A stretch of DNA of 64,000 bases from contig JAPMTP010000095.1 of assembly GCA_026413225.1 (NCBI GenBank), forward strand, positions 1 to 64,000, read 5' to 3'. This document shows, in pieces, positions 1 to 64,000 of this stretch. The DNA comes from Otis tarda (taxonomy: Eukaryota; Chordata; Aves; Otidiformes; Otididae). Position numbers and translations under genes: made by a program. Numbering within the stretch: position 1 is the first letter of the stretch; each line of letters begins with the position of its first letter. The notes under the pieces were generated by a model. The model was not told the origin of the DNA, ran no database searches, and saw only the letters and a program-made list of their open reading frames with translations.

Positions 1-141
1 TTCAACAGCTCCTCCACGTGTTTCTGCCTCTGCAGCCCTGCTTGTATCCTTTCCTCCTGAGGGTGCTGCTTCAGAGACCGCGTTCCTGACAGCTCCTTCA
101 TCTTCACCAGGCTTGCCAGAGCACTAATGATGTCAACGTAC
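1..141 (-). CDS. FHAD1: FHAD1 copy 1 exon 26 (partial at window edge)
   Basis: Acceptor CCGCAG at 142-147. The exon opens with residues YVDIISALASLVKMKELSG, which align with the mammalian ELSEK/YLDM segment. An alternative acceptor 36 nt upstream (start 177) would also keep frame. The exon runs off the left edge. Confidence 0.7.
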
Positions 142-613
142 TGCGGAAAGCCCCGGGAATGCATTATTTCCTCGGCCTGACAATTCCTCTGCCACCTACC
201 ATCACCCTGCTCAGCCACCTGCTCTCATTCTGCTCCACTGAGGGAGACATACAACGCCGCGAGGAACCTGCTGCACTCCCCTTCCCACTTTGTCTACTTT
301 CCACGCGTGCTTTCCCTGGGTGAGCTTCCCACGGACCGTACCCTCTCCTCAAGGATCAGCCCCGACTCCCGGAGGGAAACAGCCCCAGAGAGCTGAGATG
401 GAAGGGGAGAAGGATGCGCCGTTGCGTTTTCAGGCATCCCGAGACGTCCCGGCAGACGCCTGGCGTGCCCTGGCACCTGCCATCCACACTTTGGCCTCAC
501 CCACATTCCCGCAAGGACCCTGACGCTCATCGCTCACTTCCGAAATGTGTTTGAAACCACTCTCCCCTCTACGAGCCCTGGGTACCGTTTCTACACGTCT
601 GTCGCTGACCTAC

Positions 614-1998
614 CATCTTCTCGCTGAGCTCCATCGCCTTAAACACCTCCGAGCTCGTTGCCCCATCGGCGGCCTCGTACGCAGCCCCGTGCGAAACGGC
701 GTCCGGAGCCTGCACAGACAGGGAAAGAGCAATGGAGCTGCCGCACTGCCCTGGCGCTGGGCCCGAGCTGCCTTGTGCGCCTGCCTTCCGCTGCACGGGA
801 CAGGCTGCCCCGGCAATGCCGCGGTCCGCAGCCTCCCACCCCGGCCAGCTCCAGGCATCCTGGCTTTCCCGCCGAGGCCGCAGGCACCATAAACCATGCC
901 CTGCCTTCTCACCTTGGCAGTCGCTGGTGCTGTTCCTGGTGCTGGTGCCGGCTCCTTCACAAGACCCCTTTTTTCAGCCAACGTTCCCCGGCAAGCCTTT
1001 CACCAGGACCACTCGCGGCTCCGAACCCTTCTTCTTGCCAGCTGGAGGCAAACAAACACCCACCGCCACGTGCCACTCTCCGTACGACACGCTGCGCCTT
1101 CCCAGCTCGGCCCCTTGGAGCCTCGCCGGGTGGCCTGGGCTCGGAGACGGGCACAGGCTACGGAGAACAGCCTGCACGCGCCCGCCCTGCAGATAGCGCT
1201 ACCCCAGCCTCTGGCCATGGCTTTCCCTACATATTTAGCATGCAACCCTACTTCCCTGGGGGACAATTCGGAGATTGCACCCCTCACTGCTCCCTCTACT
1301 TGGGAGCTTCTACCAGCGATGGCACCGCTTCTCCACACTGCTCTCCGTGCAGGGAGAGACCCAAGGGAGAGCGACCGAATGGGAATGGCCGAGGGCTGGC
1401 AGAGGACTCTCACACCGCACGCTAATCCCAAGGCTTTAGGAGACCCAGGGCTCCATTCCTTGAGGCGCTGGCTGCTCTCGCTTGCCTCGAGGAGCGCAGC
1501 AGCTGAGCGCGGGAGCCCTCACGCACAGCGCCGGGCGCCTGCTCGCTGCTGGCTCCCACTGCGCGGCAGCTCCTGCTGCCAAGCCCTTCGCCGGCCGCCT
1601 CCTGCCAACGCCACCTCCTCACACGGCACCAAGCACTTTTCTGAAGCCTGGCACTTTTTCTTCTGCAACGCTTTCCTATCACCTGCGCACACTACCATGC
1701 ACGGGAGAGCTGCCTTTGCATGGGAACAGCCTGAGCCCCATGCACGTGAGGAGCCTGTGCCCCTGGCATGGCCCATTGCCCCCTCCTCCGCGTTACGGGC
1801 TCCACCACGCCTGTCAGGCCCTAACGGATGCCTCTTCCCCCTACAGCCCTGACAGCCTCACTTACCTGAGGACTGACTCTCCTCCAGCATCTTCAGTCTC
1901 CCCCGGAGCTCGTCCATGCCTGCTTTTTGGCGCCGGATCGTTTCCTCGTGCCTCTGGTCTCGGCACCACATGCCCAGGTTGACCAAGGCCCACGCCGG
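614..1998 (-). CDS. FHAD1: FHAD1 copy 1 exons 23-25
   Basis: Exon 23 (1,866-1,998) encodes a charged helix with RDQRHEETIRRQKAGMDELR, close to the mammalian RHEEVIQRQKKALSELR segment. Exon 24 (1,004-1,041) is a 38-nt exon behind a strong pyrimidine tract, ending RVVL. Exon 25 (614-709) starts APDAV and ends MELSEKM. Phases are 0/1, 1/0 and 0/0, so the three join without a stop. Introns hold no other gene that I recognise. Confidence 0.75.
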
Positions 1999-3464
1999 CT
2001 GCAGGAAGAAGCAGCCCAGTCAGTTCTCGCCCAAATTGCCTCCGGGTCAACACGAGCTCAGCTTGACCCTGGCTTAGACACCGCCACGCTGAAAGACGCT
2101 GCTCCCTCAGCAGCTGCCAAGAGCCAAGCCCATGGGGCGTCTCTCCCCACAGCCTCCTGGCAGATTGGTGGGGTACAGCAGCGGCAGGAGAGACCCCTTA
2201 CGTGGTCCCCTGTGCCGGCATCAGCCCTGCAAACGCTCTGGAGAGCTGAGAGAGGGACGGCGCGTGGCTCTCAGTGGCTCCCTCAGCGTTTTTCTCTGGC
2301 ACTTGGCGCCACCGCAGAGGATTTTATTGCCTTGGACACAGGCACACTGATCCGCTCGGTGGCCTGCCTTTCTACGTGATCATAGAATGATAGAATGGTT
2401 TGGCTTGGAAGGGACCTTTAAAGCCCATCCAGTCCAACCCCCCTGCAAGGAGCAGGGACATCTCCAACCACACCAGGTTGCTCAGAGCCCTGGCCAACCT
2501 GGCCTGGAATGTTTCCAGGGATGGGGCATCCACCATCTCTCTGGGCAACCTGCACCAGTGCTCTACCCATGATGTTCTACTGATCGCATGTGGGATTCTC
2601 TTCTGCGCTACACCCGTGCACACAGACCCCCGCGCTTCCCTTGCTTGCTGCATGGCCCCAAACATCCAGACACTCAGGAGAAGGGAGGCCCTTCATCCCA
2701 CCCTGCCCACTGCTGCAAGCTCCCCGCTCGGCTCTGGCCGCTGTCGCCCCGCCATTTGCTCTCAAACAACAGCTTTGCCTGGGCTGCACCTCTGGCGCCT
2801 GGCGCTTCCCCTCCCCATCGCTACGTGCGCACCAGGGCAGGCGCTACCTCCCGCTCAGCGTCAGGCTCCGAGTCACCGCCTGCCACCCAGCCTTCCTCGC
2901 TGGCACGCCCTCTGCCACCCTTGCCGTACAGGATGTACGATGCCTACAGTCCCTCCAGCTGCTGCCGCAGTCACCTTGCAGTTCTTCCCTTTTCCCGTGC
3001 CAGGGAACTCAAAAGGGGATTCAGCGCGGAGGACAAAAGACCCTCCATTCCCGTCCGGTGCAACACGCTACCCCTGCTCCTGCTCGCTCAGCCCTGTCAC
3101 TGCTTTTGTGGCGCCAATACCACCAGCAAGGTTGGGAAAAGGAGCCAACGCTTGCACATCTTCCCCTCCATCGTCCCCGCCTCTGCTTGGCAATCAGCAC
3201 AGCCATCTGCACACACCACACCTCGCGCTTCCAAAGCGCTGCGCCCACATCCAGCTCCTCACCCGCTGGCAATGCCCGCGCAGGAGCACGGCTGATGCGG
3301 CTCGTGGGTGCCACGGGCAGCCCTGCTCCTGCCTTTGGCCAGCTCGCAGCACGCCTGAGGCGGGCTGGGGCACTGGCCACTCTCACCGGCACACTGACAA
3401 ACACCACGTGCGCCATCGATACCCTCAGCAAACCCAGAGCTCGGCAGCCTCCGCGCGGACTCAC
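1999..3464. other. FHAD1 copy 1 intron 22 with a CR1 fragment
   Basis: About 1.5 kb between exons 23 and 22. It carries a short CR1 tail (2,379-2,574); the rest is GC-rich intronic sequence in which I see no conserved coding segment or RNA gene. The copy 2 equivalent is 35,958-37,423. Confidence 0.5.
2379..2574 (-). mobile_element. CR1 LINE 3' tail (copy 1 intron)
   Basis: A plus-strand run of ATAGAATGATAGAATGG followed by the typical TTGGAAGGGACC and CAGGGATGGGGCATCCACC blocks is the reverse complement of the 3' end of an avian CR1. Only about 200 bp remain. The same fragment sits at 36,338-36,533, so the insertion predates the duplication. Confidence 0.85.
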
Positions 3465-4073
3465 CCTCCCAAAGGCTTCAGCCACCTTCGCCGGTATCCA
3501 GGGAGCCTGCTTCACCTTCAGCACCGCTTCACGCGAGGCGTCCCTCAGCGCCTGACACTCTGCTCGGGCTTGCCTGTGCCAAGAGACAAGACCCTTGAGG
3601 GACACCATGACGGACAACAGCTGCCCAAACAGCTTGTGGAGAGCAGCACCCCGGGCACCCGCCGGTGACTATCGCGGGGTGGGTGGGAACGTTCAGCTCA
3701 GTTCGTGGTGACTTCAACACACGGCCACTGGCACGTGTTCCACTAAACCCCTATCTCAGTTCACGTGGCGCTTGCATAGAACCCCCATCACTGAGCTCCG
3801 CTCCGCGGCTCTCGCACACACCTTTGGCTCCCGGGGAGATCCCGAAATGCCGCCAGCTGCTAGGAATCCACACAGCAGCTTTGGCCAAGGCCCCAGTTCA
3901 CGGCTGCGTGTACCTTAACTCATTAGCTGCTGCTTGCAGAGCTCTGTCCTTCTCCTTCATCACCATGGCCATCTCCAACAGCTCCTTTCTAAGCAGGTGC
4001 AGCTCCCGCTCTTGGTCTTTCACCTGGCACATGTTCTGCTCCACTTCTGACTTCAGCTGCTCACTCAACACTC
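3465..4073 (-). CDS. FHAD1: FHAD1 copy 1 exons 21-22
   Basis: Exon 21 (3,914-4,073) is a heptad-rich coil containing LSEQLKSEVEQN and MVMKEKDRALQ, matching the mammalian ELNEKQKMELEQN and VEKKDRELK stretch. Exon 22 (3,465-3,573) follows a textbook acceptor (TCTTGTCTCTTGGCACAG) and ends at a GTGAGT donor; phase 2 into 1 nt agrees. An internal GTGAAG donor at 3,515 could shorten exon 22 in frame. Confidence 0.75.
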
Positions 4074-4909
4074 CTAGGCACACCACAGCTCCATGGGTGT
4101 CTGGCTCCCCCATCACCCAAGCCCTGGGGGATCCGCACCTCCCAGTGATCCGACGCCCGCGGCCACGTCCCTTTTTCCCAAGGCATCATCGTGAGGGCCG
4201 TCAGCCATCATGGCGCTTGTCCCCACAAACCCTTGCCCTGCCCTCGCTCGCAGCCCTCGCCTCCTGGGTCCTGCCACCAGACCTTGCTTCCCTAAATCAC
4301 GGCGCAGGGCCGGTCTCTTTGTCAGGGCAGATGCCGCAGTCACTGCTCGCTACAGCCACTTGCCCTCTGCTTCGAGAAAAGCGGGGTCGCCAGCATTTCC
4401 TGGCCTGCCCGCTTTCACCCACCTGCCTTCCTCATTCGCTTCGCGCCGTTATGGCCAGCAAAAGCGGGCCACGCGCATCCCTTTATCTCACACCTCAGGC
4501 TCCTTTCTGCCCCATACAGCCTCCCCAAAGCAACGTCACTCCCACTGAGGGATCCCCGGACAGGCTCTCCCAATTTAAAGCCTCAGGCCACCTTCGGCTC
4601 CAAGGGAGCCCAAGCAGTGGCATCCTGGAGAAAGATGGGCTCCATTTGTGTGCGTGTCCCCATCTCCCTCGGGGCATCTGCTCACCCTCACTCACCAGCA
4701 CTGCTACCGCTTACACAAGGACAGCGAGGAATTCACCCACCCCCAGAGGGAACGGACCGCCTGCTTTGCCCCAAGCTGCCTACAGCTTCACTTTCGCATG
4801 GGGACATCGCTTTCCCGTAGCTGCCCTGTGTGTGCTTCATGCCTACTGCCCTCGTTACCGCTCCGTGGAAGGACAGGAAGACGGAGGCCATGCAGTATGC
4901 TTCACTAAC
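4074..4909. other. FHAD1 copy 1 intron 20
   Basis: 836 bp without a recognisable exon. Mammalian FHAD1 has roughly a hundred more coil residues at this point. The flanking exons join in phase without them, so the bird gene seems naturally shorter here rather than broken. Nothing else is visible. Confidence 0.45.
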
Positions 4910-6306
4910 CTGTCAAGTCCAACATCCTAGCTCTGGTTACCTTGAGCTCGTTGCTTAGCCTGGTGGTGGCCTACAAGAGAGGATTGGCAGCGACTGTTAC
5001 CAGGCTTGCAGGACTCCCCCTTTCTCGTGGCTGATGCGCATCCCTGTCTAGACGGGGGAGACCACCCGCTGGCCACCAATGGCCCCCTGACCAAACTGGA
5101 CCACCGTGCTGCAGAGCCCTTCCACATTTTGTTCTTCCAAGCGTGAGCACTTCTGCTTTGCCTCCTGCGCGTGCCACTCACCTCAGTTAGGCTTCTCAGC
5201 TGGCTCTCCAGGTCTTGGATCTTCTTCTGTCCTTCCTCCAATAGTTGCTTGCACTTGTCCTTCTCCTTGGCGATAGCACTCTCCAGCATCTGAGGAGCGA
5301 CAGCCCTCAGCAAAAAACCCAACCTATCCTTTCGGAACAGACTCTGGAATGCAATCGGGAAGGTCACCACTCTGGAGCAGGGGCATGTCATGGGGAAAAA
5401 AGCCAGACAGGACACGAGGCGACTCAGAGATGGAGGGGAGAAGAGCGCCTGGGGAACGGCACGGCACAGAGACTAAGCAGGAGCCGCTTACTCAGCTGCT
5501 CCTTACCTGCTTCCTTGGGAAAAACGAAGCTGGAAAAAGCCATTCCCAAAGCGACACACACAAGTGTGCTAGGAATTGCCTCGCCAGACCACCGCAATAG
5601 GCTGTCCCCATCACACTGCACAGACACGGCAAAACACTCACTCACGCCTTGACCGACAGCGTGTCCTGCACCAGCCCCATCACCTCCACGCCCCGGGCTT
5701 CCCCGGGACTGCAGCTGACCCAGCGAGAACCTGCCAGCCCGCCACCGCCCCCACCTTCTCCACAGCCACAACAGACCTCAACACACCTCAAAGGAGCTCA
5801 GCACGGGGAAGGGAGGGAGCACATGGCTTGCAAGGAGGCCGGCCTGCGCTGGCATTCCAGCTCCTACACACAATGCAACTTCCCCCTAAGCTCACGTTAT
5901 CTGGATGCTGCTCCTTGCTTCCCGCTTTCTCCCAGGGACGGACCGGCTGCAGCGCACCCTGCCATTACCTGCATGCTTTCTGGTTCCAGGGCGGACACTC
6001 TGGGGAGTTATGATCTCCCACATCACCATGGGAGGATGGCCCGGCTCTTGGGACGGCTCCTAGGCATGTCACAGCTAGGGACATGCCTCTCCCTAGGCAA
6101 CGCTACCACGGACACCTATTTCTCCTGCATACCAGTCCTCTTCCTCACAAACCACCACACCGCCATACCTCTTTGCTCTCCTTGTCCTTCTCCATTAGAA
6201 CTTCCTTCATTTTCCTCTCCAAGTCTTGCTGGTGTTTCGCTTCCAGCTCCTTCATGTGCTTCTGCAGCAATGCTGCCTGCGACTCCTGGAGCCCCTCTAA
6301 TTGGTA
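4910..6306 (-). CDS. FHAD1: FHAD1 copy 1 exons 18-20
   Basis: Exon 18 (6,169-6,306) is a 46-residue coil with KHMKELEAKHQQDLERKMKE. Exon 19 (5,182-5,289) is a 36-residue coil with KEKDKCKQLLEEGQKKIQDL, corresponding to one unit of a repeated coil in mammals; only one unit is seen here. Exon 20 (4,910-4,970) begins ATTRLSNELK. It uses the GTTAGT donor at 4,909, not the tempting GTAACC, because only the former gives the phase needed by exon 21. Confidence 0.75.
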
Positions 6307-6618
6307 CTACAGGAAACCAGCAGACACGGAGGACTTCCAGAAAGCGTGTCGGTGGAAGAGCAAGAAACAAGCATCCCGTGTGCATTCCCTACCACGCCTT
6401 TCACAAGAGCATCCTTGCTGCGTTAGAGATACAGCCGCTGGCACACTGACAGCACGAGCTCAGGCTTCTCCACCCCCTGCATTTACTGCCACCCCAGGGA
6501 CCACCGCTACTGCGCGTTCCCAGGCCGGGAGCCACACTGCCTTGCTTGACTCAACCACTGCATTTACCGACACAACGCTCCCCAGCACCGCGGCTCACAG
6601 ACACACGCGTTTCCATAC
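6307..6618. other. FHAD1 copy 1 intron 17
   Basis: About 310 bp of intron between exons 18 and 17. I see nothing conserved in it. Confidence 0.4.
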
Positions 6619-7756
6619 CTGTAGCATCTGATTCTTCCGCGCCGTTTCCTGACTGTTTTTCACCAGTTTCTGCAAAGTGGGCAGCAGCCCTGCAAAAGCC
6701 AAGGGAGCCTCGCTGCACGGGGTGCTCACACAGCCCATGTTCACCACCCGGAGCATCCTCAGCGGCCTGGGCACGCTGCTTGCCTCCTCGGCCGCTGATG
6801 ACCTTCAGCCCTGGCCCTCACCCCCTCGCCTGATGGCGGAGGTCATAGGCAGCAGGGAGGAGAGGGGACGGCCACTGACTCCCCACGCAGTCACCCCCTG
6901 CGCTCGTTACCCACAGCCACACTCGACGTGGGCTGCCCATCCTGGGGCAGCGGATGTGCAATTGTCGGGGGAAGGGGAGACCCATGGGCAACAGCTCTGC
7001 CTTTCTTCCAGAGACCCTCGCCATCCTGGAGACACTCATCAGCCTCTCACCACGGGATTCAGGCTCTGAGATCCTCTCCGAGGGTCTCCCAGAGGCCAGC
7101 CCCAGGCCTCCCCTCTGCATTTACTGGAACTGCGGCACATTCCCACCCCCAGGAAATGGCTGCTATGGTTGAGATGTCGCTGGAAGGGAGCCTGACCGCG
7201 CACGCAGTCCGCTGGCAGGCAATAAGAGTGCACACACTGCATGAGCACATCGACCCCAGAGGAAAGCCTCGCTCCACGAGTGTCACAGGACAAAGACCGG
7301 CAGCAAAGGCACCAGGCTCCTTGCCCGCCATCAGGGCTTGCTAAACCTGGGATGCAGGGAGGGACCTTGCAGCTCTTTGCAGCGTACACCTTCATCACGC
7401 TGGCAACCATTCCTACAAGCAGGAACCCCTCGACAAGAACCTCTTGCTCCTTGCCCACTGCCTTTGGTCTGGGGAAGGCTGCTGCCATGACTTGCAAGCC
7501 TTCCTCCCTGCTGGTCCCCCATCCCCTCCTCGCTCTCTGGACACCCAGCGGGACACAGACCTTTCCCAGAGGTCATCTGGTGCATCCCTGTGCTGGCCAG
7601 CAGCCGCTCCGCGCCCTCCAGCCAGGACAACAGCACACGTGCCATTTCCACCACCGCCGCCCCAATGGGCGAGATGGAGTGGTCCAGGCACACCGCCTCC
7701 AGCCTCCCCAGTTCCTCTCGCAGGCTGTTGCTGCTGCAGGGGCTCCTCAGGCATGC
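6619..7756 (-). CDS. FHAD1: FHAD1 copy 1 exons 15-17
   Basis: Exon 15 (7,561-7,756) contains ACLRSPCSSNSLREELGRL and VLLSWLEGAERLLASTG, close to the mammalian CCSNDLKKEV and LSWLEEVEQLLRDLG. Exon 16 (7,366-7,412) is assigned mainly on phase (1 to 0) and has a weak GTCCCT donor. Exon 17 (6,619-6,669) encodes KLVKNSQETARKNQMLQ, matching the mammalian VNSSQETQQ segment. Confidence 0.7.
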
Positions 7757-8135
7757 CTGGAGAAAACACAGCCGGTCCACACGCTAGCCTGCACAGTTTG
7801 CGGACTTCCATGCCTTGGCACAACAGACAACATCTCTGAGAAAGTCCTGGGGACAGCCTGGTGAAGGCTTCGGTACGACACTTGGCTTCTGGGGTCAGTA
7901 TCTGGGGTGGGAATGGCAGGCCCTGGGGAGGACACTTCCACCCCACCTCCCCCATTGCTTGCCAACCAACACTTTTTGGGGGCTACACTCCCCTCTCGCT
8001 GCTCTGCAGAGCTCCGCACTGCCTAGTGCGCATGCCCAAGCATCTCTTTTCCCTCTCCTCACCTCACGCCCAAAAACTGCCCCGTGCCACTTATCTCCCG
8101 GCTGCCAGTTGGCCAACGGCCTTTAAAGGACTGAC

Positions 8136-9316
8136 CTGGAGCTGGCCCAGGGATTTCTGGAACACCTCAACTTTTGTCGACACCTCCTTCTCCCTGAAGA
8201 GCCTGGAGTTTATTTCTTCTAGCAGAGACTTCACTCTCTTCTGACTCTGTTGCTTTTCTTGAGACGTCTCCCTGACCTTGTCTATCACCTGGCAAAAGCA
8301 CACGACAGAGAATAAAGCGCCATCTTACCATCCTTTTCCAGCTGAGGGAAACATCCGCTGCCACACGGCCTGTCTCTGTGGCCTATAATTAAAGCTCTGT
8401 GCAATGTAGCAGCCCCATCAGACTCCCGGACTTCTCCTGCTTGCAGCCCACGGACTCCATGCGAGCTTTGGCGGACACAGAGGATCGTGTCTTTCATGTC
8501 AGGTGGCAGCGCCACGAACCTGGGAGAGCTGCTGCCCAGCTTACAGCCTGGAGAGTCTTGGATGCTACCACTGCACGGAGCAGGCACCATGGCCGTTCCG
8601 TAGCGATCGACTCGAGCCGCTTCGGCTCAAGTCCTGCTCTCCGAACTCACCTGCTCCTCCATCAGAGCCTCCTCTGCACCACCCACTGCTCCTGGAGAAC
8701 AGACTTGAATCACTTGGATTTTGAAGGACTTCAGCTACAGCAGAAATCAACACGGGAAGACACAAATCACTGAAACCTGCTAGCAGCTCTGCTGCCCAAC
8801 CCAGCCCTCTACATACCAAGGCAAAGGCTGTCCTGGCACCTTCCTCCTCCGACACCGAGGTCTCTGCGCTCAGGCATGATGACCTTACCTTTGCCTTGGC
8901 AACACTCGTCCCGTAGCTGCCTCCAGCCCGGACCGTGGATCCTGCCGATCCTGCCCCATGCCCACAGACGCCCTACCTGCTCCTTGGCCTGCTCCAGGTT
9001 GGCTCTCAGCAGCTCCTCCTTGCGCCCCATGGCCTGCAGCCGCAGGGCTTGCTTGGCGCGGTGTTGCTTCAGCATCTTCTCAGCCTGCAAGCCAAGAGCA
9101 TTTGCACATCAAAGCCAGACCAGTCAAACATGCCAGAAGCGCTTCTGCCCAGACCATCTCGTGCCCATTCCTCCCTGCCCTCCGCCGCGTACCCCACAGC
9201 CAGATCCTTACCTTGGCTTTCTCAGCCAGCTGCCCTCGCGTGATCTCCTGCTCAGCGCAATACTTCTGCACCTCCCGCTGCAGCTGCTCCACGTCGCGTT
9301 CCAGCTCCTTGACACG
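8136..9316 (-). CDS. FHAD1: FHAD1 copy 1 exons 10-14
   Basis: Five coil exons: 10 (9,212-9,316; RVKELERDVEQLQREVQKY), 11 (8,977-9,084; MGRKEELLRANLEQAKEQ), 12 (8,889-8,916; 28 nt, LRDECCQGK), 13 (8,651-8,691; 41 nt, ending LMEEQ) and 14 (8,136-8,288; VIDKVRETSQEKQQSQKRV). Exons 12 and 13 are individually out of phase but sum to 69 nt, which restores frame. Order and residues follow mammalian FHAD1. Confidence 0.8.
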
Positions 9317-9711
9317 CTGCAAGAGTCCCGGGACAGCGCAGGCTCTCACCAGAGGAGCTCGGCACTGCCTCTCCAGAGGGTTTCTCCCACTAAGCCCTAC
9401 ATTTTCCCCATCTGGCCCATTTCCTTTAGCCCACAGCTTTCTCCTCTCAACGTTTACTGTGGTCAGATTGGTTTTCGAGTGGCTTGCACTCTTATTTCAG
9501 ACACCATTCTCCTGCATTGCAGCGCGGTGTTACGATTTCTACCGGAGCTTACATTTCTCCGGCTCCCTCTGCACATTAGGCACCTTCTATTACAGGAGTC
9601 GGAGGCAAAGCACCTCCCTCAAAATGCCCAGTCGCTTTTTCTCTCAACGATGCATTCCCACGCCCGCTGCTCGCCCGCGCACTCCATCGCCCCAAACGCC
9701 TTGCAACTCAC

Positions 9712-11223: not shown

Positions 11224-11821
11224 CTGAGGAAAAAACCGCTCCGGTGACAGGCTACCCTAGGTCCCTGGCACAGGACCACCCTCCCTCTTTGACAACCGTT
11301 CCCCTTGGACAGTGGATTCAGCTTTCGGCACACCGTGCTGCCCATCGCTCCGTGACAGCATCGCTACCAAGCTCCTCGGAGCCTCGTGGCACACGCTCCC
11401 GGGAGGCTGAGCAGTTCTTACGGATCCGATTCGGCTGCCTTACTGCGTCAGATCCGCGGCTCCGATGCTGCCCTCCCTGCCGAGCGAGCTGTCCCCCACG
11501 GGGTGCACGGCCGCTCACTCAACAGCACCGCGTGCCAGCAGCTCAGAGCCCGCCCCACCATCGGCGCTTTTCTCCCCTAACACACTTCTCCATCCCAACA
11601 CTCTGCCTTCGGCGCCCGCATTGTCCCTCGCTCTGGGGGCCCTCGTCGTGTCAGACGCTGCCCTGCAGCCCCCGCAGAGCTTCAGGGCACAGATGCGGAG
11701 GATTTCTAGGAGCCCCTCCAAAACTTCTGTTGCTTGGACACTTTGGCCAAGGCTCCTTCCTTGCCAGGAGCCGGTCCCCACCCGCTTTGTGCCCCTCCAC
11801 AGAGCTCCAGGGATACCATAC

Positions 11822-11945
11822 CGCTAACCACAGCGTGGTCCCTCTTCCACTTCTCGCTTTCTTGCCGCAGCCTTACGATTTCCAGGTCTCTGCTGGAGGC
11901 GCAATGGGCTAAAACCTCGCTCACTTCTTTCTGCAGTTCGCTGAT
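11822..11945 (-). CDS. FHAD1: FHAD1 exon 7 (copy 1 only)
   Basis: Begins ISELQKEVSEVLAHCASSRD and ends in HAVVSG, aligned with the mammalian ISALQKGYSQVL and ITSG. Phase 0 in, 1 out. The copy 2 equivalent is deleted. Confidence 0.8.
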
Positions 11946-13401: not shown

Positions 13402-13614
13402 CTGCTGCCTCAAGGCTCTGGTCTCCTCCGTTTTGGCTCCCAGCTCTCGGTCAAAGGTGCGCTGCTTCTGGGACAGCTCTACCTTGGTCCTCGCCATCAC
13501 CTCAGCCAGCGCCCTCGTCATAGTTACGATCTCATCCTGCAGATCTCTTATCACTCCGTCTTTCTCCTTCAGTCGTATTTCCCAGCTCGACAAGTGATCC
13601 ACTTCCTTGTCCAC
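13402..13614 (-). CDS. FHAD1: FHAD1 exon 6 (copy 1 only)
   Basis: 71-codon coil exon starting VDKEVDHLSSWEIRLKEKDG, aligned with the mammalian GKEVSRLSDYEIESKYKD. Acceptor TTCCGCAG, donor GTACTG, phase 0/0. Deleted in copy 2. Confidence 0.82.
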
Positions 13615-13918
13615 CTGCGGAAGCCCTGCATCCTGTGGGCAGATTACGGGTGCCGGCTGTCACTCTCTGGCTACGGAGACACCGGGCCGCCCGCTCCGGG
13701 TGGTACCCGCTCGTGGCCATCAACCGCCTGGAACTTGCTCGCCCCGGCCTTCCACGAACCACCGCGCCCACCCCCATCACCAGGAGAACTCCCCTTCGCT
13801 GACGGTCCCTGCACCCTGCTGGGGTGGCTGTTCAGAGCCAAAATCATTTGGCGGGGCTCGCCTGCTCTGCCCAGGACGGGGACAGGGACGGTGTCCCTCA
13901 CACCTTCCCCCACCTCAC

Positions 13919-26167: not shown

Positions 26168-26171
26168 GTTT

Positions 26172-53065: not shown

Positions 53066-54797
53066 TGTCGCAGTTCAGCCCCGATTGGGACCACACTACG
53101 CAGTCTCTCTCTCACTCCCCCCACCCTCCAGTGGGACAGAAGGGAGAACTGGTAAACCTAAAAAAAAACCAGCAAAAACATGTGGGCTGTGATGGAACAA
53201 AAAAAAAAATTAACAGTGGAAAACAAAACAGTGATGGAAAACAAATACATTATAATGGCTTACAACAAATCCCCACACCTGGTTTCTTCCAAGTAGCAGG
53301 AGGCTCCCCTCAGCACCCTCCTCACTGATACCCTGAGCACCATGTCAGATGGGATGGAACAGCCCTTGGGCTCACTTGGGTAAATTAACCCCAGCTGTTA
53401 GCTCATTAGTTAACTATCCCAGCTGCCTGCCCCAGCCATAGGGGCCACCAGCTCCAGTTCTCTGCCCAGCTCAGGTGAATATTAACTCTGTCCTAGCCAG
53501 AACCAGGACATTATCCACCCCTTAGTCCACACCATCTACAGCATGCCCAGACCCTACACTTTCCGATTAATCATCAACTTTTTCTTTCTTTGATCTGCTT
53601 GTATGCAGACACACAGATGTAACTCCCCTAGTCCATGGCCCATCCCTCCAAAAGCTCTTTTGAGTTTATCCAGTCCATAACTTTGGGCTCCATCTGTCAT
53701 AACAGTCTCTCAGCGCAGGACAGACAATGCCATGTTTGCTCAGGCAGTGTATCTGCTGCGAGTGATTTAGCATGTTCATGGTCTGCAGACTGAAGATCTA
53801 TTGCTAGGTGCTAGTGGCAAGAGCCAGTTCTGGTTCCATCACTGCTGCCTTTTTTTCTGTTTTATCCAAGTTCATTCTTTGTTGGTCTAGCTGATTTTAC
53901 TGTAATACTTTTGACACAACACAAGTCTCTCAGGGTGTGGAGCAGGAGGAAGCAAAGAGGCACACAGAACGGCTGGATAATGACATCCAGTACTATACAG
54001 TAATCAGCATCAAGCACTTCAAATTATTGGCTCTTTTCACCTAAAATTAGATCTCCTTGAGGTACACATCGGACTTCCCCATCCTCCTGCATTACCCACC
54101 AAGTACACCCAGGTCCTTGAGCAAAAGCAATCCCATGCACGGGTTTGCCTTTGCCCAGGGGAGAAATGACCCAGACTGTCTTCCCCAGTATATTCCTCAC
54201 ATGCACCACAGGGACTTTATCCCCTTCAACAGTACGCAGCTGTTCAGATTGGGCAGGGCCAGCTCGATTGGTGGACTACCCGAGTGTTGACTAGCCAAGC
54301 GGCTTTTGCTAAATGTTTGTCCCAGTTTTTGAAGGTTCCACCACCCATTGCTTTCAGTGTCGTTTTCAGCAGCCCATTGTACCTTTCAATTCTTCCACAG
54401 GCTGGTGCGTGATAGGGGATGTGGTATACCCACTCGATGCCGTGCTCTTTGGCCCAGGTGTCTGTGAGGTTGTTTCGGAAGCGGGTACCATTGTCTGATT
54501 CAATTCTTTCTGGAGTGCCATGTCGCCATAAGACTTGTTTCTCAAGGCCCAGGATGGTGTTCCGGGCAGCGGCATGGGGCACAGGATATGTTTCCAGCCA
54601 TCCGGTGGTTGCTTCTACCATTGTAAGCACATAGCGCTTGCCTTGGCGGGTTTGTGGGAGTGGGATGTAATCAACTGGCCAGGCCTCTCCATATTTACAC
54701 TGCAGCCATTGTCCTCCATAGCACAGAGGCTTTAACCGCTTGGCTTGCTTGATTGCAGCACACATTTCCCATTCGTGGATAACCTGTTGTAAGGGTC
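53066..54797 (-). mobile_element. ERVL-type endogenous retrovirus, 3' half (block 2)
   Basis: Duplicate of 20,495-22,229: LTR 53,066-53,510, integrase core 54,244-54,765 and C-terminal domain 54,024-54,209 in separate frames. Confidence 0.85.
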
Positions 54798-56420
54798 GGT
54801 CAGAAAATCAGTATTGTCTCAGCCTTGTCATCGAGGACTTCCAGGTGGACTGTGGACTTGATCTGGCCTAAAAGGTAGGCTCACAACTGGACATGAGTTG
54901 CTGCCAGCAGCCTGCCTGAGATGCAGTTGTTTTTTTCCGGGGAACAGAACGGAACTGTTATGGACAAGGCCGACTCTGGCCTAACAACAAAATGTACAAC
55001 ACCCTTGAGATGGCGGACAGAGTGGCGCGGAGGTGCCACGGCTCAGCCCTGTTGTCAAAAACTGCCAGAGATAACCGTGCAGCTGCTATCGAGGAGGATG
55101 GAAAATATTGAAAACAAAACTATTGATGCTCTACAAGGGCTGCAAACTGAAGTATCCAGCTTGTCAAAAGTAGTTTTACAGAATCGGATGGCCCTGGACC
55201 TATTTTTGGCCTCGCAAGGGGGGGTTGGCACAGTCATTAACACAAGCTGTTGTATCCATCTAGATCAGAGTGGTAGGATCTCCACAGATCTAAAAGAGAT
55301 TCGGGAGCAGACTAAAAGCTTACGTGAGGTCACCAAGGATGATACTTCACGGGGCTTTGAAGATGTGTGGAACAAACTTACTTCTCGGCTTCCCAGTCTC
55401 ACACAGCTGAAACAATTATTTACGGCTGCTACGTTGCTTGGTTTGCTCATTTTCCTTACTTGCAGTCTAATTCAATGTGCTTCCTGGTGCTGTGAAAGGG
55501 CCACAGGGAGTTACGAAGAACGGAAATCACATAAACTTAAATATCGAGTAGAATCAGGCAAGGATTTTAAAAGGACCATCAAAACCAATGGGATTCTCTA
55601 AATTTTGCAAAAGAATTTGCAATGATCTTTAAAAAGGGGGCAGTTGAAGAGGAGAGCTAGAAGAATAAAGGACTAATCAGAATAATAATAAAATTATTAA
55701 GCAATAAAACAAGTAGCTTTATAATAAAACAGTAGTTTTTGTATAGCCTAGCAGGACCCCTGCAGAACAATTTAATTCTTGTGCAAAAGTACAAACCACT
55801 AACCTCGAGAGAAAGAACAGCAGAGTCAGAAATTTACCATAACAAGGTACTTTCAGAATGCCCCAGCAGGTGCTGGGATGAGTCCCATGGGAACATCCTG
55901 AGGGAGCACAGACACACGAGTGAAACCAAGAGAAGGGGGCTTCAGGGGTTTAGAAGCAACTGCTGGGGTGGAACAACCAAGGACACTGGGAACCAACACA
56001 GACAAGTCGCTAAGAAGCTGCCTTGGCAGCAAGAAGAAAGAAGAACAAAAGTCTGAGTTCGCGCAGCGCACACGGTGATGAAGAGGAGGAAACAACCACC
56101 GGCTGAAGTAAACGACCAGCAGAGGGACTGCGACTCCTGAGAACAGACACGGGAGGACGCAGAGACTGGGGAAGAACCTGTCTCAGCTGGGTGGAAACTT
56201 ACGAGAATGATTTCTCGAAAAACTAACGACTATGTCACCAAATCCTCGGGAATTCTACGAATCTGTGTGTCTGCGATGCACAAATCTTGTACCTGTCGCT
56301 CATCACGGCGCAGGCGTTTGGAGGAGCGATCCCCCGCGTGCCCGGCGCTGTAATAAAGAATACCTGCTTAATAGTTACCTGGACTACGAAGTTTCTTTTC
56401 TCAGAGCTTTTTCGGCTTCA
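54798..56420 (+). mobile_element. ERV A: env transmembrane end plus 3' LTR (block 2)
   Basis: Duplicate of 22,230-23,853. LTR 55,645-56,420. The purine tract is AAAAAGGGGGCAG here. Confidence 0.75.
54921..55601 (+). CDS. ERV A Env transmembrane-subunit remnant (block 2)
   Basis: 226-residue open frame, the same motifs as 22,392-23,033, including loss of the first Cys of CX6CC. It is open upstream to 54,921 because of an extra T in the homopolymer. Confidence 0.65.
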   Translation: MQLFFSGEQNGTVMDKADSGLTTKCTTPLRWRTEWRGGATAQPCCQKLPEITVQLLSRRMENIENKTIDALQGLQTEVSSLSKVVLQNRMALDLFLASQGGVGTVINTSCCIHLDQSGRISTDLKEIREQTKSLREVTKDDTSRGFEDVWNKLTSRLPSLTQLKQLFTAATLLGLLIFLTCSLIQCASWCCERATGSYEERKSHKLKYRVESGKDFKRTIKTNGIL

Positions 56421-57252
56421 GCAGCGTGGCCCTGCCGCCCCGTCCCGTGCAAGCCTTCCCCCGGCTGCAGCGCGCTTCCTCGCTCTCGCTCCCCTCCTCT
56501 CCGATTTGCCGTGCGCATCCGTCCCTCTGCCTCTCCCCGGGAAGCTCCCAAAGGGGAACATCACCCCCGCAGGGACCAAAAGCCCTCCCGGGCCCTGCTG
56601 TACCCGGCACAGCCGCATCGGCGCGTCGAGGCGCAACCTGCGCGTCTCGCTGCCGCGTCCAGGGCCGGGGTGCCAGCCTCCGGGAAGAAGCGGGAGAACA
56701 GGGGGGCTCCTCGCCCTGGGGAGGGCACGCTGGCACCCCAACAGCCCCCCAGCCTCGGGCTTCGGGCCTCGCCGCGCCCAGCTCGGCCCTGCAGGGACTT
56801 TCCCGGCCGGAGCGAGGGGCTGCAGCAGACCGCGGCCGTGCCTTCGCCGGCGGGAGCTGCCCGCACAAAGCGCCCGACGGGCTCTGCGGGGACGCTCCGG
56901 GTCACCCCGCTCGCCCCCGGCTACTCACGCGCATCCCGGCGTGACCGTGGCCGAAGCCACCCCGCTTTCGCTCTCCCGCCCAGAAATTTCCAGGGCTCGA
57001 TGCTTGCCCGGGGCCGGGCTGCCGGAGTCACGCTCCGCCGTGCGCGGCGGCGCGCAGCGCGGTCGGGTGCCTGGGACACGCCGCAGCCCCGGGGGCTGCA
57101 CCGCGGGCAGAAAAATGGGGGCGCCCTCGGCGCAGCGGCAACGCGGGGGTCCCTTGCCATCTCCACCGGCCCCAGCGCAAGGGGCCAGGGTCCCCCGTCC
57201 CCCGAGATGGGCGGGGGGTCCGTTCTGCGGGGGTGCAGAGGGGACCCTGCTG
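56421..57252. other. CpG-rich host segment (block 2)
   Basis: Duplicate of 23,854-24,685, with no supported exon. Confidence 0.5.
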
Positions 57253-57980
57253 TAAGGGGCTGGGGGACGGCATCCCCTGCAAGGTGCCCGGGAGGGGGAA
57301 AATCCCGGGGATCCCTCCCGCAAGGAGAGCGGGTGGGGGGTGTCCCAGCCATCCCTCTGCAAAAGGCTGGGGTGGTGGGGAAGCCTCCTGCAAGGAGCTG
57401 GGGGGGATGTTAGGGGGTCCCCCTGCACGGAATGGCGGGGGGGGTGGGGCCCTGTAAGGAGCCTGGGGGGGATCCCTCCTGCAAAGATTTAGGGGGTCCC
57501 CCTTGCAAGGAGCTGGAGAGATCCCGGGGGTCCTTCCTACAAAGAATGGGGGGTGCCTCCTGCTAGACATAGGGGGTCCCTCCTGCAAGGAGCCTCGGGG
57601 GGATCTGGGGGTCCTTCTGTAAAATATGGGGGAGTCTCTCCTGCAAGGAGCTAGGGGGTCCTGCAGGTCCTTTCTGCAAGGAGTAGGGGGATTCTTCCTG
57701 CTAGGAATGCGGGGGAGGACCTCCTGCAAGGAGCTGGGGAAGTGCTGGGGGTCCTTCCTGCAAAAAATGAGGGGGTCCCTCCTGCAAGGAGCTGTGGGGG
57801 ATCCTCCAGGTCGTTCCTGCAAGGAATGAGGGGGGATCTCTCCTGCAAGGAACTGGGGAGGACCTCGGGGTCGTCCTGCAAGAAACAGCGGGGTCCCTTC
57901 AGCGAGGAGCTGGAGGGGTCCTGGGGGTTCCTCCTGCAAAAAGTGCGGGGTCTTTTCTACAAGAAGCCTGGGGGTCCTTC
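57253..57980. repeat. G-rich minisatellite (block 2)
   Basis: Duplicate of 24,686-25,411 with small unit differences. Confidence 0.85.
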
Positions 57981-58736
57981 TGTTACAAGTATTACGAGTT
58001 AAAGCGAGCTGATTATTAGTTTGCTGCTGCACTCCTCCTATCTCGATCTGGGTATCGAGGACTTTAATCAGTAGAATTATAATCAATCCTATTATCAACC
58101 AATGATTGATAATAGCAAAATACTTAATCAGTACGACTCCGGAATATCAATATGGGGTGATTCTTGCTAACTCTAGAACTCTAGTCACATGGGTTAAATT
58201 TTATATGAAATATCCTTAGAGGGAATGGGGAGTCTTAGAACTGTTACACCACCTCGTTTATTGGAAGTTAGCCTAACGTGTCTGGGGTAGTTAGGAGAGT
58301 GGCAGAACCAGGCACCAACTGTGCAGCTTGGGCCTTGAGCCATCACTTTCAAGCCAGAAGATTCAAGGGCAGGGCGACCTTGTTCTCAAGACTATCTAAG
58401 GAAGATTTAAGGGGGAGTTCGACCAGCGAATTCGAGGAGGGGGCGCTCTGACGACCCCCAAGACCACCAGAAGACCCTCGACTCAAAAGACTGAGCATGC
58501 GCAAGTGGGTGGGGAAATATTATAATGATTTATCAGAAATTTAATGTTTATGTATAACATTTCTCGTAAATCTAGTGAATATGTATCTCGAATGTGTATT
58601 TAACTGCGCTGTTGGATCAGACAGGTGCGCACGCTGGGTGGAGCGATCCCCTGTGTGCCCAGCGCTGCAACAAAGAAGTGCCTGCTTCTGAACTTCACAT
58701 TGCTGTTAAGGAGTTTTATTCCGGATTTCGGTAACA
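57981..58736 (+). repeat. ERV B 5' LTR (block 2)
   Basis: 756 bp, the same TGTTAC/GTAACA ends as block 1. Confidence 0.85.
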
Positions 58737-59999
58737 GTTTTGGCGACCCAGGTGGGACCTTGCGAGTGAGACTGGATGAGATCGAGTGTCGATGGAACTC
58801 TGGCCGGCACCGAGGCATTCTCGGGGAGACCCATCGCTTTCGACTCACAAAGCTCCTCGCAACGTTCCCTGGAGAAAAGGGTAAGGCTCTTCTTCTTTGA
58901 AATCTGTCTGCTCTGGATAGCCTGCCCGTAAGGCGCGGCGAAAGCTTCGCAGGGTTGGGGCTCAGGGGGTACCTGTTTGGTTTGGGAGCCTAGGCCTCTG
59001 CCTGCAAGTCATAAGCGAAAGCTATTGCTGGGTTGGACATCTGTGTATTTGGGACCATTGTCATTTGCATTTGTTTGGTTTGTGTATTTGGACAACTGTC
59101 ATTTGCATTTATCTGGTATTTGGCATTTGGTCTAAACTGTTTAAGAGTAAGAGTATGGGAAGTATTGGTAAGATTTGTACATAGCTTGGAAAGGGGCCCC
59201 AGGGTGTTTTAGAAGTGATTTCCAAGCTGGTAATTGTTGCTTCAACGCATTTGGGGTTTTAAACTTTTCTTGGTGACGGGATTGACTTTGTCTGTAGAAC
59301 AGTGTTATTGTCTTTTTGGTACCAAAAACTCTTTTGTAAAGTATGGGAAAACACGTACCTTCTATGTCTACCTCAATGGGAGGGGAAATATGAATGAAGT
59401 CTCCACTGGGATGTGTTCTTAAACATTGGGAGGATATAAGGGGAGACCCAATGACTAGGAAAAAAAAATTGATACAATATTTTACAGTTGATGTTATCTT
59501 GTAGAAGGGAAGGAAAGTGAGATGTGGTCCCCTATGTTGATTTGTTCTTTACTTTGAGAAATCAAGGATCTGATGGTTTTGGAATAAAAAAAAAAAAAAA
59601 GGAAAAAGGTTGAAAAGATCTTGTTTGGCTTGTAGTGTAGAAAGTGGTGTTTAAAATGTGGAACTGAAGAGGAAGACAGAATTCATGTGTTAAATTTCTG
59701 TGTTATCTTTATGTGTTGTCTGTAAGTGTTGATGCAGGTTTAACAAATGAAACAGTAGAAAAAGGGGGCAGAACACCGAAGCCCTGGTGGGAGCTGTAGA
59801 GTGGGACAGTTGAATGATGAGGGATTCAGTCCTGTCGCAGGGAGAACTGGAAGCCGACAAGACCAGACAGAACAAGGAGCGGCTCAAGCCCTGCCCCCCA
59901 CTTGGACAAGCAGTAGGGGAACAAACCAGGGATGAGGTCGGGGTGTGGTAGAGGAATGGATAAAATAACCGCAATAGGAGTGAGATTGGGAAAATCAGT

Positions 60000-60386
60000 G
60001 TGCAAAGCGTGAAGAATGGTGGCATTGGAAAAATGAATGTCCTTATTCTGAAAAAGAAACAAAAACCTGGCAGCAGAGCAGATGCCTTTGTCAGAGGTGC
60101 AAAGAGAACTGGGGGAGAATTCCCCAGCAGAACCCCTGGTTACAATCCAGCTGGGGACCCAAACCATGGGATTTTTTTGGTTGATAGTGGAGCTATCTAT
60201 TCAGTTTTAAGTACTTGTAGAAGAAAATTGAGTAAAAAGCATGTAGACCAAATTGGTGCCACAGGGAAAGCTGAAAAGAAATTTTTCTTTCAATCCTTAA
60301 CTTTAAGGTGGGTAAACAATGGGGAATTGGCCAATTTTTCTATATACCAGAGTGTCCTGTTGCCTTATTGGGGAGAGATTTATTGA
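60000..60386 (+). pseudogene. ERV B protease remnant (block 2)
   Basis: Same FLVDSGAIYSVL signature as block 1; decayed. Confidence 0.65.
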
Positions 60387-60699
60387 GCAAATTGAAAGCA
60401 CAAATTAGTTTTTAAAACTGTGAAATTCAATTGAATATACCCTAATCAAAAGCCAGAGAGGCAAGAATTTTTATGTTACAGACAACTTCAGAGCCATGTG
60501 AAATCCCTCAAGAAGTGGACAATGCAGTAACTCCTTTGGTGTGGGCTGGCGAAGTTCCCGGACATTCAAAAGCAGCAGAACCGGTAAAGATTTTTCTAAA
60601 GGAAAGTACCAAACGGCTAAGACAAAAGCAGTACCCTTTAAAATTAGAAGCTGGAAGAGGCCTTGAGAAAATAATTGAATTTTTTTTTTTAAATATTGA

Positions 60700-62022
60700 C
60701 TGTTAGTCAAATGTGAATCAGTATTCAATACTCCCATTTTACCTGTGAAGAAGCCAGAAAGTGAAGAATATAGGTTAGTACAAGATTTTAATAGCAATAA
60801 ATTTAATAGTTCAAGATATTCACCCCTTAGTGGCAAACCCGTATACCTTGTTGAGAGCTTTAAAAGAAAATCACAAGTGGTTCACAGTACTGGACTTATA
60901 GAATGCCTTTTTCTGTATTTCCCTTGATAAAAACAGTCAGGCATATTTTGCCTTTGAACTGGAAAATCCCACAACTGGGCAGAAGACTCAGCTCACCTGG
61001 GTAGTGCTACCTCAAGGATTTAAAAATAGCCCAACGATCTTTGGAAATCAATTGGCTAAGGAATTAGAAACACGCAAAATAATTTATCCTGAAAGACTGG
61101 TGTTGCAATATGTAGATGACATTTTAGTAGCCACAGAGAAGAATATTTCAACTTGACTACTAACCTGCTAAATTTCTTGGGCCAAAGTGCTAACAGATTT
61201 TCCAAGAAGCAAGCGCTGATTGGAAAAGAGACTGTCATGTATTTGGGATTTGAAGTTACACAGGGACAAAGACGACTTGGAAATGAGAGAAAAGAGGCAA
61301 TTGGCCAAATGCCGGAGCCAAAAGGAGCTAAGGAGCTGCGAACATTTCTGGGAATGGCTGGCTGGTGTCACCTGTGGATTAAAGGAATCAAAGGAGGGAC
61401 CCCTTGTGTGGGGACCTGAAGTTCGAAAGGCATTCCAGAATGTGAAGGCAGCTCTGATGTCCACTCCTGCTCTAGGGTTGCCTGATTTAACCAAACCCTT
61501 TGAACTGTTTGTTCATGAAAGACAACACTCGGCTCTCAGCAAAATCCTTTCTCAGAAAAATGGAGCATGAAGAAGACCGGTTGGTTATTTCTCCACACAA
61601 TTGGACAATGTTAGCCAAGGATGACCAGGTTGTCTATGAGCTGTAGCAGCAACTGTCCTTCTGATTTAAGAAGCTCGTAAGCTGACAACGGGACAGCCAA
61701 GAACAGTTTATGTACCGCATATGGTACTTTCTGTTCTGGAACAGAGAGGAGGACACTGGTTATCCCCAAGCAGGACGCTCAAACATCAAATTGTCCTGTT
61801 GGAACAAGATGATGTCAAATTGAAAACAACTACAACAATAAATCCTGCCATCTTTTTAAGTTCAACAGAACAGGAAGTTCTAAGTCACGACTGTCTACAG
61901 ACCATCAAACAAGTTTATTCCAGCAGAAGTAACAGAAGAGTGAACATATTCCTGACCCAGAATTCGAGATACGTACTGATGGAAGCAGCTTCGTGAGAAA
62001 CGGAAGAAGATTGGCTGGATAT
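60700..62022 (+). pseudogene. ERV B RT/RNase H remnant (block 2)
   Basis: RT pieces with YVDD and the connection segment, then RNase H pieces as far as TDGSSF, then the break. Stops and frame changes throughout. Confidence 0.7.
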
Positions 62023-64000
62023 GGTCCTGCCGAGCACCAGAGCAGGCCTGGGAATAGCGGGAATCCTGTGCTTGCAGGACATTTGTAGATTGGCCATGTA
62101 TGTTTGGAGGGAAGCGGCGTGGTTTTGCGTGTGTGCGTCTGAGCTGGTGTGCTGGTGACTTTCAGCCCGGCCGCTCCTGCTGTCTGTGTGCCTGGGAGTT
62201 TGGCCGAAGGCTGAATTTGTGCTCCGCCTCCTACATCTTTCAGCCGGAGGATGTGGGAATTTGTCAACCGTGGGAGCGGGGACTGGGCCAAGAAGCGATC
62301 TTGGGGTTTGCTGTTAAGAGAAATGCAAGGGTTAGGCTTGTTTCCAGCAGGCCTGGGGTGCCTAATCAAAGGATTATAGGGGTGTCAGGTATGGCACGGC
62401 AGGGCGGGCGAGGGAGAACCTAACCCCTCCCTCTTCCCAGGCTTAACTTCAGCTAAAATATCTCTACCTCCTTACCCACCCCGAGCAGCACAGGGGCGAA
62501 TGGCAGTGGGGGTTACGGTCAGTTCATCACTTGTCGCTTTACCCTGCTCCTTCCTCATCTGGGGGGAGAACTCCTCACGTTCCTCCCCTGCCCCGAGGTG
62601 GGGTCCTTCCCGGGCTGCAGGGGGACAGGCTGCCTCAGCATGGGCTGCAGGGGAATCTCTGCCATTACCCCTTCCCCTCCTTCTCCACTGCCTGAGACTC
62701 TTCACATCTCATCTCCTCTCCACTTCTCGCAGCCGGGCCGGGCCGAGTCGGGCCCAGTCGGCCGCCCGGCGGGAGGCCAGAGGGTGAGGCCTGCAAGGCC
62801 CACAAGGCTTGCGCCTCCCCCTCTCTGCCCCTTGCCTCTGCATTGCGTGTGGCGGAACACTGGCACTGGTTGCCGGGGAGGCGGTGGATTCCGCATCCGT
62901 GTAAACATTCCGTGCCAGGCGGGACCGGGCTCAGAGCGGCTGATCCGATTGGAGTGGCCCGGGTCGTCGCTGGCAACCTAGAACCGCAACGGAACCTCTG
63001 CGTTGCCATGGTTCTGTTCCGCGGCCCGGCTGTGTCAGTTGGTGTCGAGCAGAGCTGCTGTTGGCACTCAACTTTCTCGTGCTGCTGGGCCAGTGGCCAG
63101 GCAAAAGGAGAAGCGAAAAAACAAAACGCCAAAACAAACCCCAGCGAGAGGAGCACCGAGGAGGGCATCAGCGAGGGCTGACGCGGCTGGGATTTCCGAG
63201 GCTACAGCGAGGCGGCAGCCACGCTGCCGGCCGGGGCAGAGCCGCCCTTGGAGCGACGCTGTACCATCTCTAGCACGTGAGTTGGTCAGCACGTTTGTGG
63301 CTGGGTTGCTGTGCGTCGGTCGGGGGATTTACTAAACGGTAGTAGTTGTTCTTTGTAACGTAAGCCTTGCGGGTGAAGGGGCTGGGGCAGCTGATGTAGG
63401 AGACAATGAAGGTGGCTCGTCGCTGCCGTCCGGGGATGCTCTGCTTATCGGGAGGGTAGCAGAGAGTGTCCGAATTACGCGTGTGACAGGCCCGGCGTAG
63501 GGGGTGGTGATTGCCGTGGCAAGGCAGGAGTGCGGTGAGAGGCTTTGGGTCGGCTCGCTGCACGGGAGAAGTGACAGGGTGGGGCCACCTGCGTGGGAGC
63601 CAGGAGAGGCGTGAAAGGAGGGCTTTCGGATAGTGCCGATGACGTGCAGAAACAGGGCAGTCGAATGGAGAGAGAGGGAAGAGCTGGCAAAGCATCAAAA
63701 CTCAAGGATTTTTTTTTAATTTTGCAAAAGATGGGGGAGTCTGGTTTTAAGTCCGATCCTTGGGGAACGGAAAGGGGAGAGGACTCAAAATGCGCCTCCG
63801 CTGAGGTCTGTGCCTGGGGTTTGTAGGACATAACGCACGCGGCCCAAGGGCTAAGGAGGTGCCTGAAGTCTTGCTGCTATTGGGGTCTTTTTTCCCCTCA
63901 CAGGTGTCCTGTATCCCCGCACGGAACAGGCAGCTCTAGGTGGCTTCAAAGGCCGAACTCTCAAAGTTTGTGCCTCATCCGCCCCTCTCCTCGCTGTGGG
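62023..64000 (+). pseudogene. FHAD1: FHAD1 copy 3: inverted 5' end without FHA exons
   Basis: Reverse complement of about 15,020-16,997. It contains the 5' flank, promoter half sites (CGTTGCCATGG at about 63,001), noncoding exon 1 with donor after 63,276, the same 1,063-bp FHA deletion scar as copy 1 (near 63,385), and the start of exon 4 from 63,904. Exon 4 has a TAG at 63,937-63,939 where copy 1 has CAG. It continues beyond the window. Confidence 0.88.

What the first reader, a model, noticed from the sequence alone, without database searches (positions are those of the whole stretch)
1..64000. Nested amplification of FHAD1 in a bird genome
Two FHAD1 bodies, two extra 3' ends and one inverted 5' end lie in 64 kb. 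Each body is followed head-to-tail by the 3' end of a further unit, giving a tandem unit of about 20.3 kb. A larger block with the retroelement tract repeats again. I know of no described FHAD1 array in birds; if it sits on the W, a germline-restricted chromosome or an ampliconic microchromosome, it may relate to sperm or cilia function.
Basis: partly seen in the sequence, partly recalled or inferred. Interest (0 to 1): 0.8.

Follow-up and report, generated by a model that had tools for sequence, protein, structure and literature searches.

The report
Decaying FHAD1-like gene amplicon, bustard-like
The window holds repeated, incomplete copies of a fast-evolving version of a gene linked to sperm movement, most like one annotated in a bustard; the amplification looks real, but no copy seen here is whole.

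Summary
The amplification is in the sequence. Two ~28-kb blocks (A 3-29211, B 33964-61788; mean substitution difference 1.03%) each carry an FHAD1-like gene body on the minus strand, a detached 927-bp FHAD1 3' end and a retroelement tract. An inverted 5' end (62023-64000) runs off the window. The "tandem unit of 20.3 kb" is only a spacing: the repeated piece is 927 bp. The closest protein found is "FHAD1-like" of the bustard Chlamydotis macqueenii (82.8% identity; the other 44 proteins aligned reach at most 62.2%); both share a C-terminal deletion and a long branch. No copy in the window is complete: A lacks the FHA exons, B lacks exons 4-6, both lack central coiled-coil exons and share a frameshift in exon 20. 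B still has 17 exons with standard splice sites and a 726-codon open frame. One 4.2-kb stretch shows 6 A/B differences where 43 are expected, as gene conversion would give. Best reading: a segmental-duplication amplicon of a rapidly evolving FHAD1 copy, homogenised in patches while decaying. Chromosome, genome copy number and expression were not testable: the genome search was unanswered in 9 of 9 attempts.

The parts
3..15642 (-). FHAD1-like body A: exons 3-22 of my numbering (central coiled-coil exons missing); FHA exons 1-2 absent; exon 20 frameshifted; the end of the gene lies beyond the left window edge
   Evidence: self-BLAST; exon map
11784..14438 (-). 2655 bp of A holding exons 4-6, absent from B
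4500..8700 (-). Near-identical tract between A and B (6 differences in 4191 bases, 43 expected)
19567..20493 (-). Detached 927-bp FHAD1 3' end (exons 22-23), with an in-frame stop in exon 22
20494..29211 (.). Retroelement tract of block A: integrase on minus, env part on plus, reverse transcriptase and RNase H pieces on plus, G+C-rich minisatellite; rearranged remnants
   Evidence: Pfam; tandem repeats; copy in B
29212..30125 (-). 914-bp insertion in A absent from B at the matching site, CR1-like (8-bp end repeat, RVT_1 match below Pfam's cut-off)
   Evidence: junction sequences
30126..30364 (+). 239 bp shared with 61785-62023 (99.6%); end of the A/B homology
33242..34168 (-). 3' end of body B (exons 22-23); the terminal exon's frame ends in a stop just left of 33242
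33964..48192 (-). FHAD1-like body B from ATG 48192: exons 1-3 and 7-22 (exon 23 at 33223-33322); exons 4-6 missing at 45917/45918
34873..48192 (-). Span of the conceptual 726-codon open frame of copy B (17 exons, then a stop in exon 20)
   Evidence: spliced translation
34873..35001 (-). Exon 20 of B with a one-base length change and an immediate stop; same lesion in A at 913-1041
41497..41640 (-). 144 bp between exons 12 and 13, absent from A
47138..48196 (-). 1059 bp of B holding exons 1-2, absent from A and from the inverted copy
47711..48192 (-). Exons 1-2 with start codon and FHA domain (only copy in the window)
   Evidence: Pfam FHA 43.8 bits, cut-off 20.7
52138..53064 (-). Second detached 927-bp FHAD1 3' end (exons 22-23), no stop in exon 22
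53065..61788 (.). Retroelement tract of block B, copy of 20494-29211
62023..64000 (+). Inverted copy of the 5' flank and start of the body, with A's FHA-exon deletion junction; runs off the window end

Best explanation
This is a segmental-duplication amplicon of a divergent FHAD1 copy (called FHAD1L here) in a bird close to bustards. Shown: two body copies, four copies of the 3' end (one cut by the window edge) and a third, inverted 5' end; the copies are patchwork-similar and differ by separate exon-removing deletions. Inferred: smaller duplications made the detached 3' ends, a ~34-kb block including the retroelement tract then duplicated head to tail, and an inverted duplication placed a third copy head-on; gene conversion or unequal exchange keeps patches alike. 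Inferred: the gene stayed coding for much of the time since it split from the Chlamydotis copy, then lost its C-terminus by a frameshift shared by A and B, while single copies lost exons. In this window it makes no full FHAD1; at most copy B could make a shortened FHA plus coiled-coil protein.
For: Repeat structure. Best protein hit P0001, 716 bits against 520 for the next; 82.8% identity against at most 62.2% for the other 44 proteins aligned. Window and P0001 form a clade with 100% support on a stem of 0.436; their path lengths from the turtle are the longest of the 40-row tree (1.30 and 1.32; next Falco 1.23). Both have the shortened C-terminus that P0002, P0003 and P0037 lack. Uneven A/B divergence: 6 differences in 4191 bases, 43 expected, binomial p 1.6e-12, region chosen. 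A-type deletion junction in the inverted copy. Copy B: 17 exons, 726 codons open, AG and GT at every internal junction. No stop and one frameshift in that model, against 3.7 stops in simulation (P of none 0.02) and about 9-15 frameshifts expected if neutral.
Against: No depth, chromosome or expression data. The frame-retention test rests on a protein-tree branch length; with 40 instead of 68 events the chance of no stop is 0.105, and small A/B indels may include sequencing errors. P0001 residues 997-1048, which in the window fall between exons 16 and 17, match it at 81-83%, no worse than the 82.8% mean of the exons, which speaks against constraint. A/B exon changes are 7 nonsynonymous and 4 synonymous (pN 0.0047, pS 0.0093), too few to show selection. 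The 1% difference could in principle be two haplotypes.
Confidence: 0.72

Rival explanations
1. Blocks A and B are the two haplotypes of one locus joined by an assembly error.
For: One head-to-tail repeat of about 34 kb at 1% difference is the usual look of a false duplication; no depth data were available.
Against: Multiplicity exists inside one block (body plus a detached 3' end), and an inverted third copy has A's deletion. Mean divergence 1.03% with 1-kb bins up to 2.4% is above the 0.14% heterozygosity of the great bustard, given as the lowest of four Otidiformes (PMC10354230, passages); the window's own species is unknown. A 914-bp insertion and two exon-removing differences separate A and B.
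Confidence: 0.15
2. FHAD1L is not an extra paralog but the only FHAD1 of this bird lineage, moved and sped up.
For: No second Chlamydotis FHAD1 and no bustard FHAD1 of the ordinary type is named among the listed hits of three protein searches (120 of 157 listed; 18 of 18; 120 of 131; each scored only about 7,990 candidates). A placement with cuckoos is not rejected (AU p 0.157).
Against: Absence from capped lists of 90% clusters named by one member is weak, and many bird species are missing from them. P0001 is on a 292,585-base contig, whereas ordinary FHAD1 in many listed birds is on contigs of about 8-12 Mb. Placement as sister to the other Neoaves is not rejected either (p 0.206).
Confidence: 0.3
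3. All copies are dead pseudogene debris in repeat-rich DNA, without coding constraint for a long time.
For: No copy in the window is complete; shared frameshift in exon 20; fast protein evolution; an apparently intronic stretch of P0001 is as similar to the window as the exons are; retroelements around each body.
Against: Open frame over 17 exons in B with both large deletions phase-preserving, and fewer lesions than the neutral expectation.
Confidence: 0.3
4. W-linked or germline-restricted ampliconic gene.
For: Inverted and direct copies, patchy homogenisation and retroelement load are a usual look of ampliconic sex-linked DNA (general knowledge).
Against: Not tested. The germline-restricted chromosome is known from songbirds only (recalled), and the nearest relative found is a bustard. 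G+C of 56.4% fits a microchromosome origin at least as well (inference).
Confidence: 0.12

Closest known systems
FHAD1-like protein of Chlamydotis macqueenii (P0001, 1358 aa)
   Same: 82.8% identical over 1005 aligned residues; shared C-terminal deletion; clade with 100% support
   Different: The P0001 model keeps the central coiled-coil stretch (about residues 806-979) and an open exon 20; the window copies do not
Ordinary avian FHAD1 (for example Calonectris borealis P0002)
   Same: N-terminal FHA domain, colinear coiled-coil exons
   Different: 60.8% identical to the window, while most other birds aligned are 70-92% identical to Calonectris; has the longer C-terminal coiled coil
Ampliconic gene families and segmental duplications in vertebrate genomes (general knowledge)
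   Same: Direct and inverted copies at about 99% identity, patchy homogenisation, partial copies
   Different: Sex-linkage and testis expression, typical of the best-known cases, were not testable

Membership tests
FHAD1 gene family | N-terminal FHA domain | tested here: met
   PF00498 43.8 bits, cut-off 20.7, in copy B 47555-48007; that stretch is absent from A
FHAD1 gene family | Colinear coiled-coil exons matching FHAD1 | tested here: met
   tblastn and splice map
FHAD1 gene family | Complete open reading frame | tested here: not met
   Missing exons and exon 20 frameshift in A and B
Segmental duplication | Copies over 1 kb at over 90% identity | tested here: met
   13.6 kb at 98.6%, 7.5 kb at 99.0%
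Segmental duplication | Real in the genome, shown by reads or depth | not testable with these tools
   No reads; the genome search unanswered
Ampliconic gene family | Several copies with homogenisation | tested here: met
   Copies; near-identical tract
Ampliconic gene family | Sex-chromosome location or germline expression | not testable with these tools
   The genome search unanswered; no expression data
Avian germline-restricted chromosome | Present in germline, absent from soma | not testable with these tools
   No reads

The most novel reading that the evidence does not exclude
Bustards carry a rapidly evolving, amplified FHAD1 family, still coding in some copies and homogenised by gene conversion, that may have taken over from ordinary FHAD1 in sperm or motile cilia, perhaps on a sex-linked or tiny chromosome.
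Probability: 0.17. Interest if true: 0.65.

Novelty: new member of a known kind. Interest (0 to 1): 0.42.

Why it matters
A fast-evolving, amplified copy of a gene whose loss lowers sperm motility in mice, though fertility stayed normal (PMC10984166, abstract), would be a candidate for sperm competition or sex-linked conflict in birds. Five full-text searches for FHAD1 with bird, with germline-restricted chromosome, with sperm and cilia, with avian and copy number, and with chicken listed 6, 0, 8, 2 and 8 papers; going by titles and abstract openings none reports an avian FHAD1 amplification. In the great bustard genome paper 'forkhead' and 'FHAD' do not occur in the main text; its supplementary list of expanded families was not seen.

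Tried and rejected
Home-made exon prediction with splice scores was too weak for a gene model; protein-guided mapping replaced it. Rfam found nothing at gathering thresholds. Pfam on 10 further open frames matched in 2 (reverse transcriptase, RNase H), 8 had no match, among them spacer frames; not all frames of the window were scanned, so other host genes are not excluded. The first splice model of B had boundary errors and was replaced; the ends of exons 5 and 6 of copy A were set wrongly, so the spliced A translation printed there is not used and the frame of A was not re-tested. The label 'FHAD1-like' does not mark one paralog: the Aquila '-like' protein groups with Accipiter and Harpia. 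The 45 proteins aligned with the window were my choice from 138 held; before the tree I dropped 6 of the 46 rows (Apaloderma, Ficedula, Anomalospiza, a second Mycteria, Neopsephotus, Corvus). Placement inside Neoaves is weakly supported (59-74%) and next to the long Falco branch, so it is not relied on; of four constrained placements, outside Neognathae (AU p 9.7e-5) and with Gruiformes (p 0.028) are rejected, with cuckoos (0.157) and sister to the other Neoaves (0.206) are not (fast searches).

Full report
Structure. Self-BLAST gives two large blocks in the same orientation: A 3-7538, 7539-11783, 14439-15642 and 15639-29211 match B 33964-41496, 41641-45918, 45917-47137 and 48197-61788 at 95.6-99.0% identity, and 30126-30364 matches 61785-62023 at 99.6%. 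Over 26,516 aligned bases there are 273 substitutions, 1.03%. A third, inverted copy of 15024-16998 lies at 62023-64000 and is cut by the window end. A 927-bp piece with the last two FHAD1 exons occurs at 19567-20493, 33242-34168 and 52138-53064, and 205 bp of it at 3-207. Pairwise identities of the three full copies are 97.84% (first against second), 98.17% (second against third) and 99.14% (first against third); over the 205 bp shared by all four the counts of differences are only 2 to 5 and do not resolve the order. The two detached fragments being the closest pair suggests that they are older than the A/B block duplication (inference; gene conversion could mislead). The spacing of 3' ends is 20,286 bp in A and 18,896 bp in B, but only 927 bp of a 'next unit' is present.

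What the gene is. The FHAD1 exons lie on the minus strand, except that the inverted copy is on the plus strand. The search with typed window exons found 157 proteins with E <= 0.001 among 7,989 scored; [quoted passage not shown] Pfam finds the FHA domain in copy B. tblastn of P0001 with inspection of splice sites gives the exon pieces that I number 1 to 23. Over 1005 shared columns the composite window protein is 82.8% identical to P0001 and at most 62.2% to the other 44 proteins aligned. In a tree of 40 rows the window and P0001 form a clade with 100% support after a stem of 0.436 substitutions per site. Both lack a stretch of the C-terminal coiled coil present in the ordinary FHAD1s read.

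Damage. A lacks B's 47138-48196, which holds the start codon and FHA exons; the inverted copy has the same deletion junction. B lacks A's 11784-14438, which holds exons 4-6. Both lack the exons for about P0001 residues 806-979, and both have the same one-base length change in exon 20 followed at once by a stop. The fragment at 19567-20493 has a further stop in exon 22. So no complete FHAD1 is encoded in the window.

Signs of past constraint. Copy B reads open from ATG 48192 through exons 1-3, 7-19 and into exon 20: 726 codons, with AG and GT at every internal junction, including those bridging the two deletions. If the window branch (0.094 amino-acid changes per site, about 68 over 726 codons) had been neutral, simulation gives 3.7 stops on average and none in about 2% of runs; with 40 events, none in 10.5% (1500 runs per setting). 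Noncoding A/B DNA shows 38 frame-breaking indels among 40 indel events for 261 substitutions, which predicts 8.7 to 14.6 frameshifts for 60 to 100 substitutions; one is seen in the B model. The only A/B indel inside the exons compared is 15 bp, in frame. Against this: P0001 residues 997-1048, which fall between exons 16 and 17 in the window and look intronic, match it at 81-83%, as well as the exons do. A/B exon changes are 7 nonsynonymous and 4 synonymous over 1917 sites, and 11 of 1928 exon bases against 89 of 9916 other gene-body bases differ (not tested for significance). Past constraint is therefore likely but not shown.

Homogenisation. In A 4500-8700 there are 6 differences in 4191 aligned bases where the average predicts 43 (binomial p 1.6e-12; region chosen), while other 1-kb bins reach 24 per 1000. 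The inverted copy is nearer to A in its first 400 alignment columns (5 differences, against 12 to B) and about equally near to both elsewhere. Gene conversion or unequal exchange between copies explains this best (inference).

Retroelements. Each block carries remnants: integrase core on minus and an env part on plus in both blocks (Pfam rve and TLV_coat), reverse transcriptase and RNase H pieces on plus, scanned in block A only. Their orientations conflict, so the tract is rearranged or composite. Block A has a 914-bp insertion with 8-bp end repeats and a sub-threshold RVT_1 match that B lacks at the same site; I call it CR1-like from recalled features.

Not settled. Genome copy number, chromosome, sex linkage, germline restriction and expression were not testable; the genome search did not answer in 9 of 9 attempts. 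The great bustard assembly and the Asian houbara reference assembly of the 2026 paper were both made from males and hold no W (PMC10354230 and PMC12852100, passages); I do not know which assembly P0001 comes from. Fhad1-null mice have reduced sperm motility but normal fertility (PMC10984166, abstract), and human FHAD1 staining is described as confined to motile cilia of the fallopian tube epithelium (PMC13096173, passages); these concern ordinary FHAD1, not these copies.

Noticed in passing
29212-30125: Insertion present in block A and absent from block B at the matching site, CR1-like with 8-bp end repeats and largely covered by a 297-aa open frame; if it postdates the block duplication it hints at recent CR1 activity.
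   Followed up: partly
20494-29211 and 53065-61788: Endogenous retrovirus remnants with integrase and env/RT pieces in conflicting orientations, duplicated together with the FHAD1 block.
   Followed up: partly
24917-25412, 31261-31627, 57467-57981: G+C-rich minisatellite with a unit near GGGGGTCCCTCCTGCAAGGAGCT in three places.
   Followed up: no
38870-38930 and 4910-4970: Exon 16 appears to use an acceptor at the edge of an old deletion that removed the central coiled-coil exons, keeping the frame.
   Followed up: partly
protein P0028 (Mycteria americana): This FHAD1 model contains a stretch that by eye resembles the CR1-like open frame at 29306-30196, probably an annotation error.
   Followed up: no
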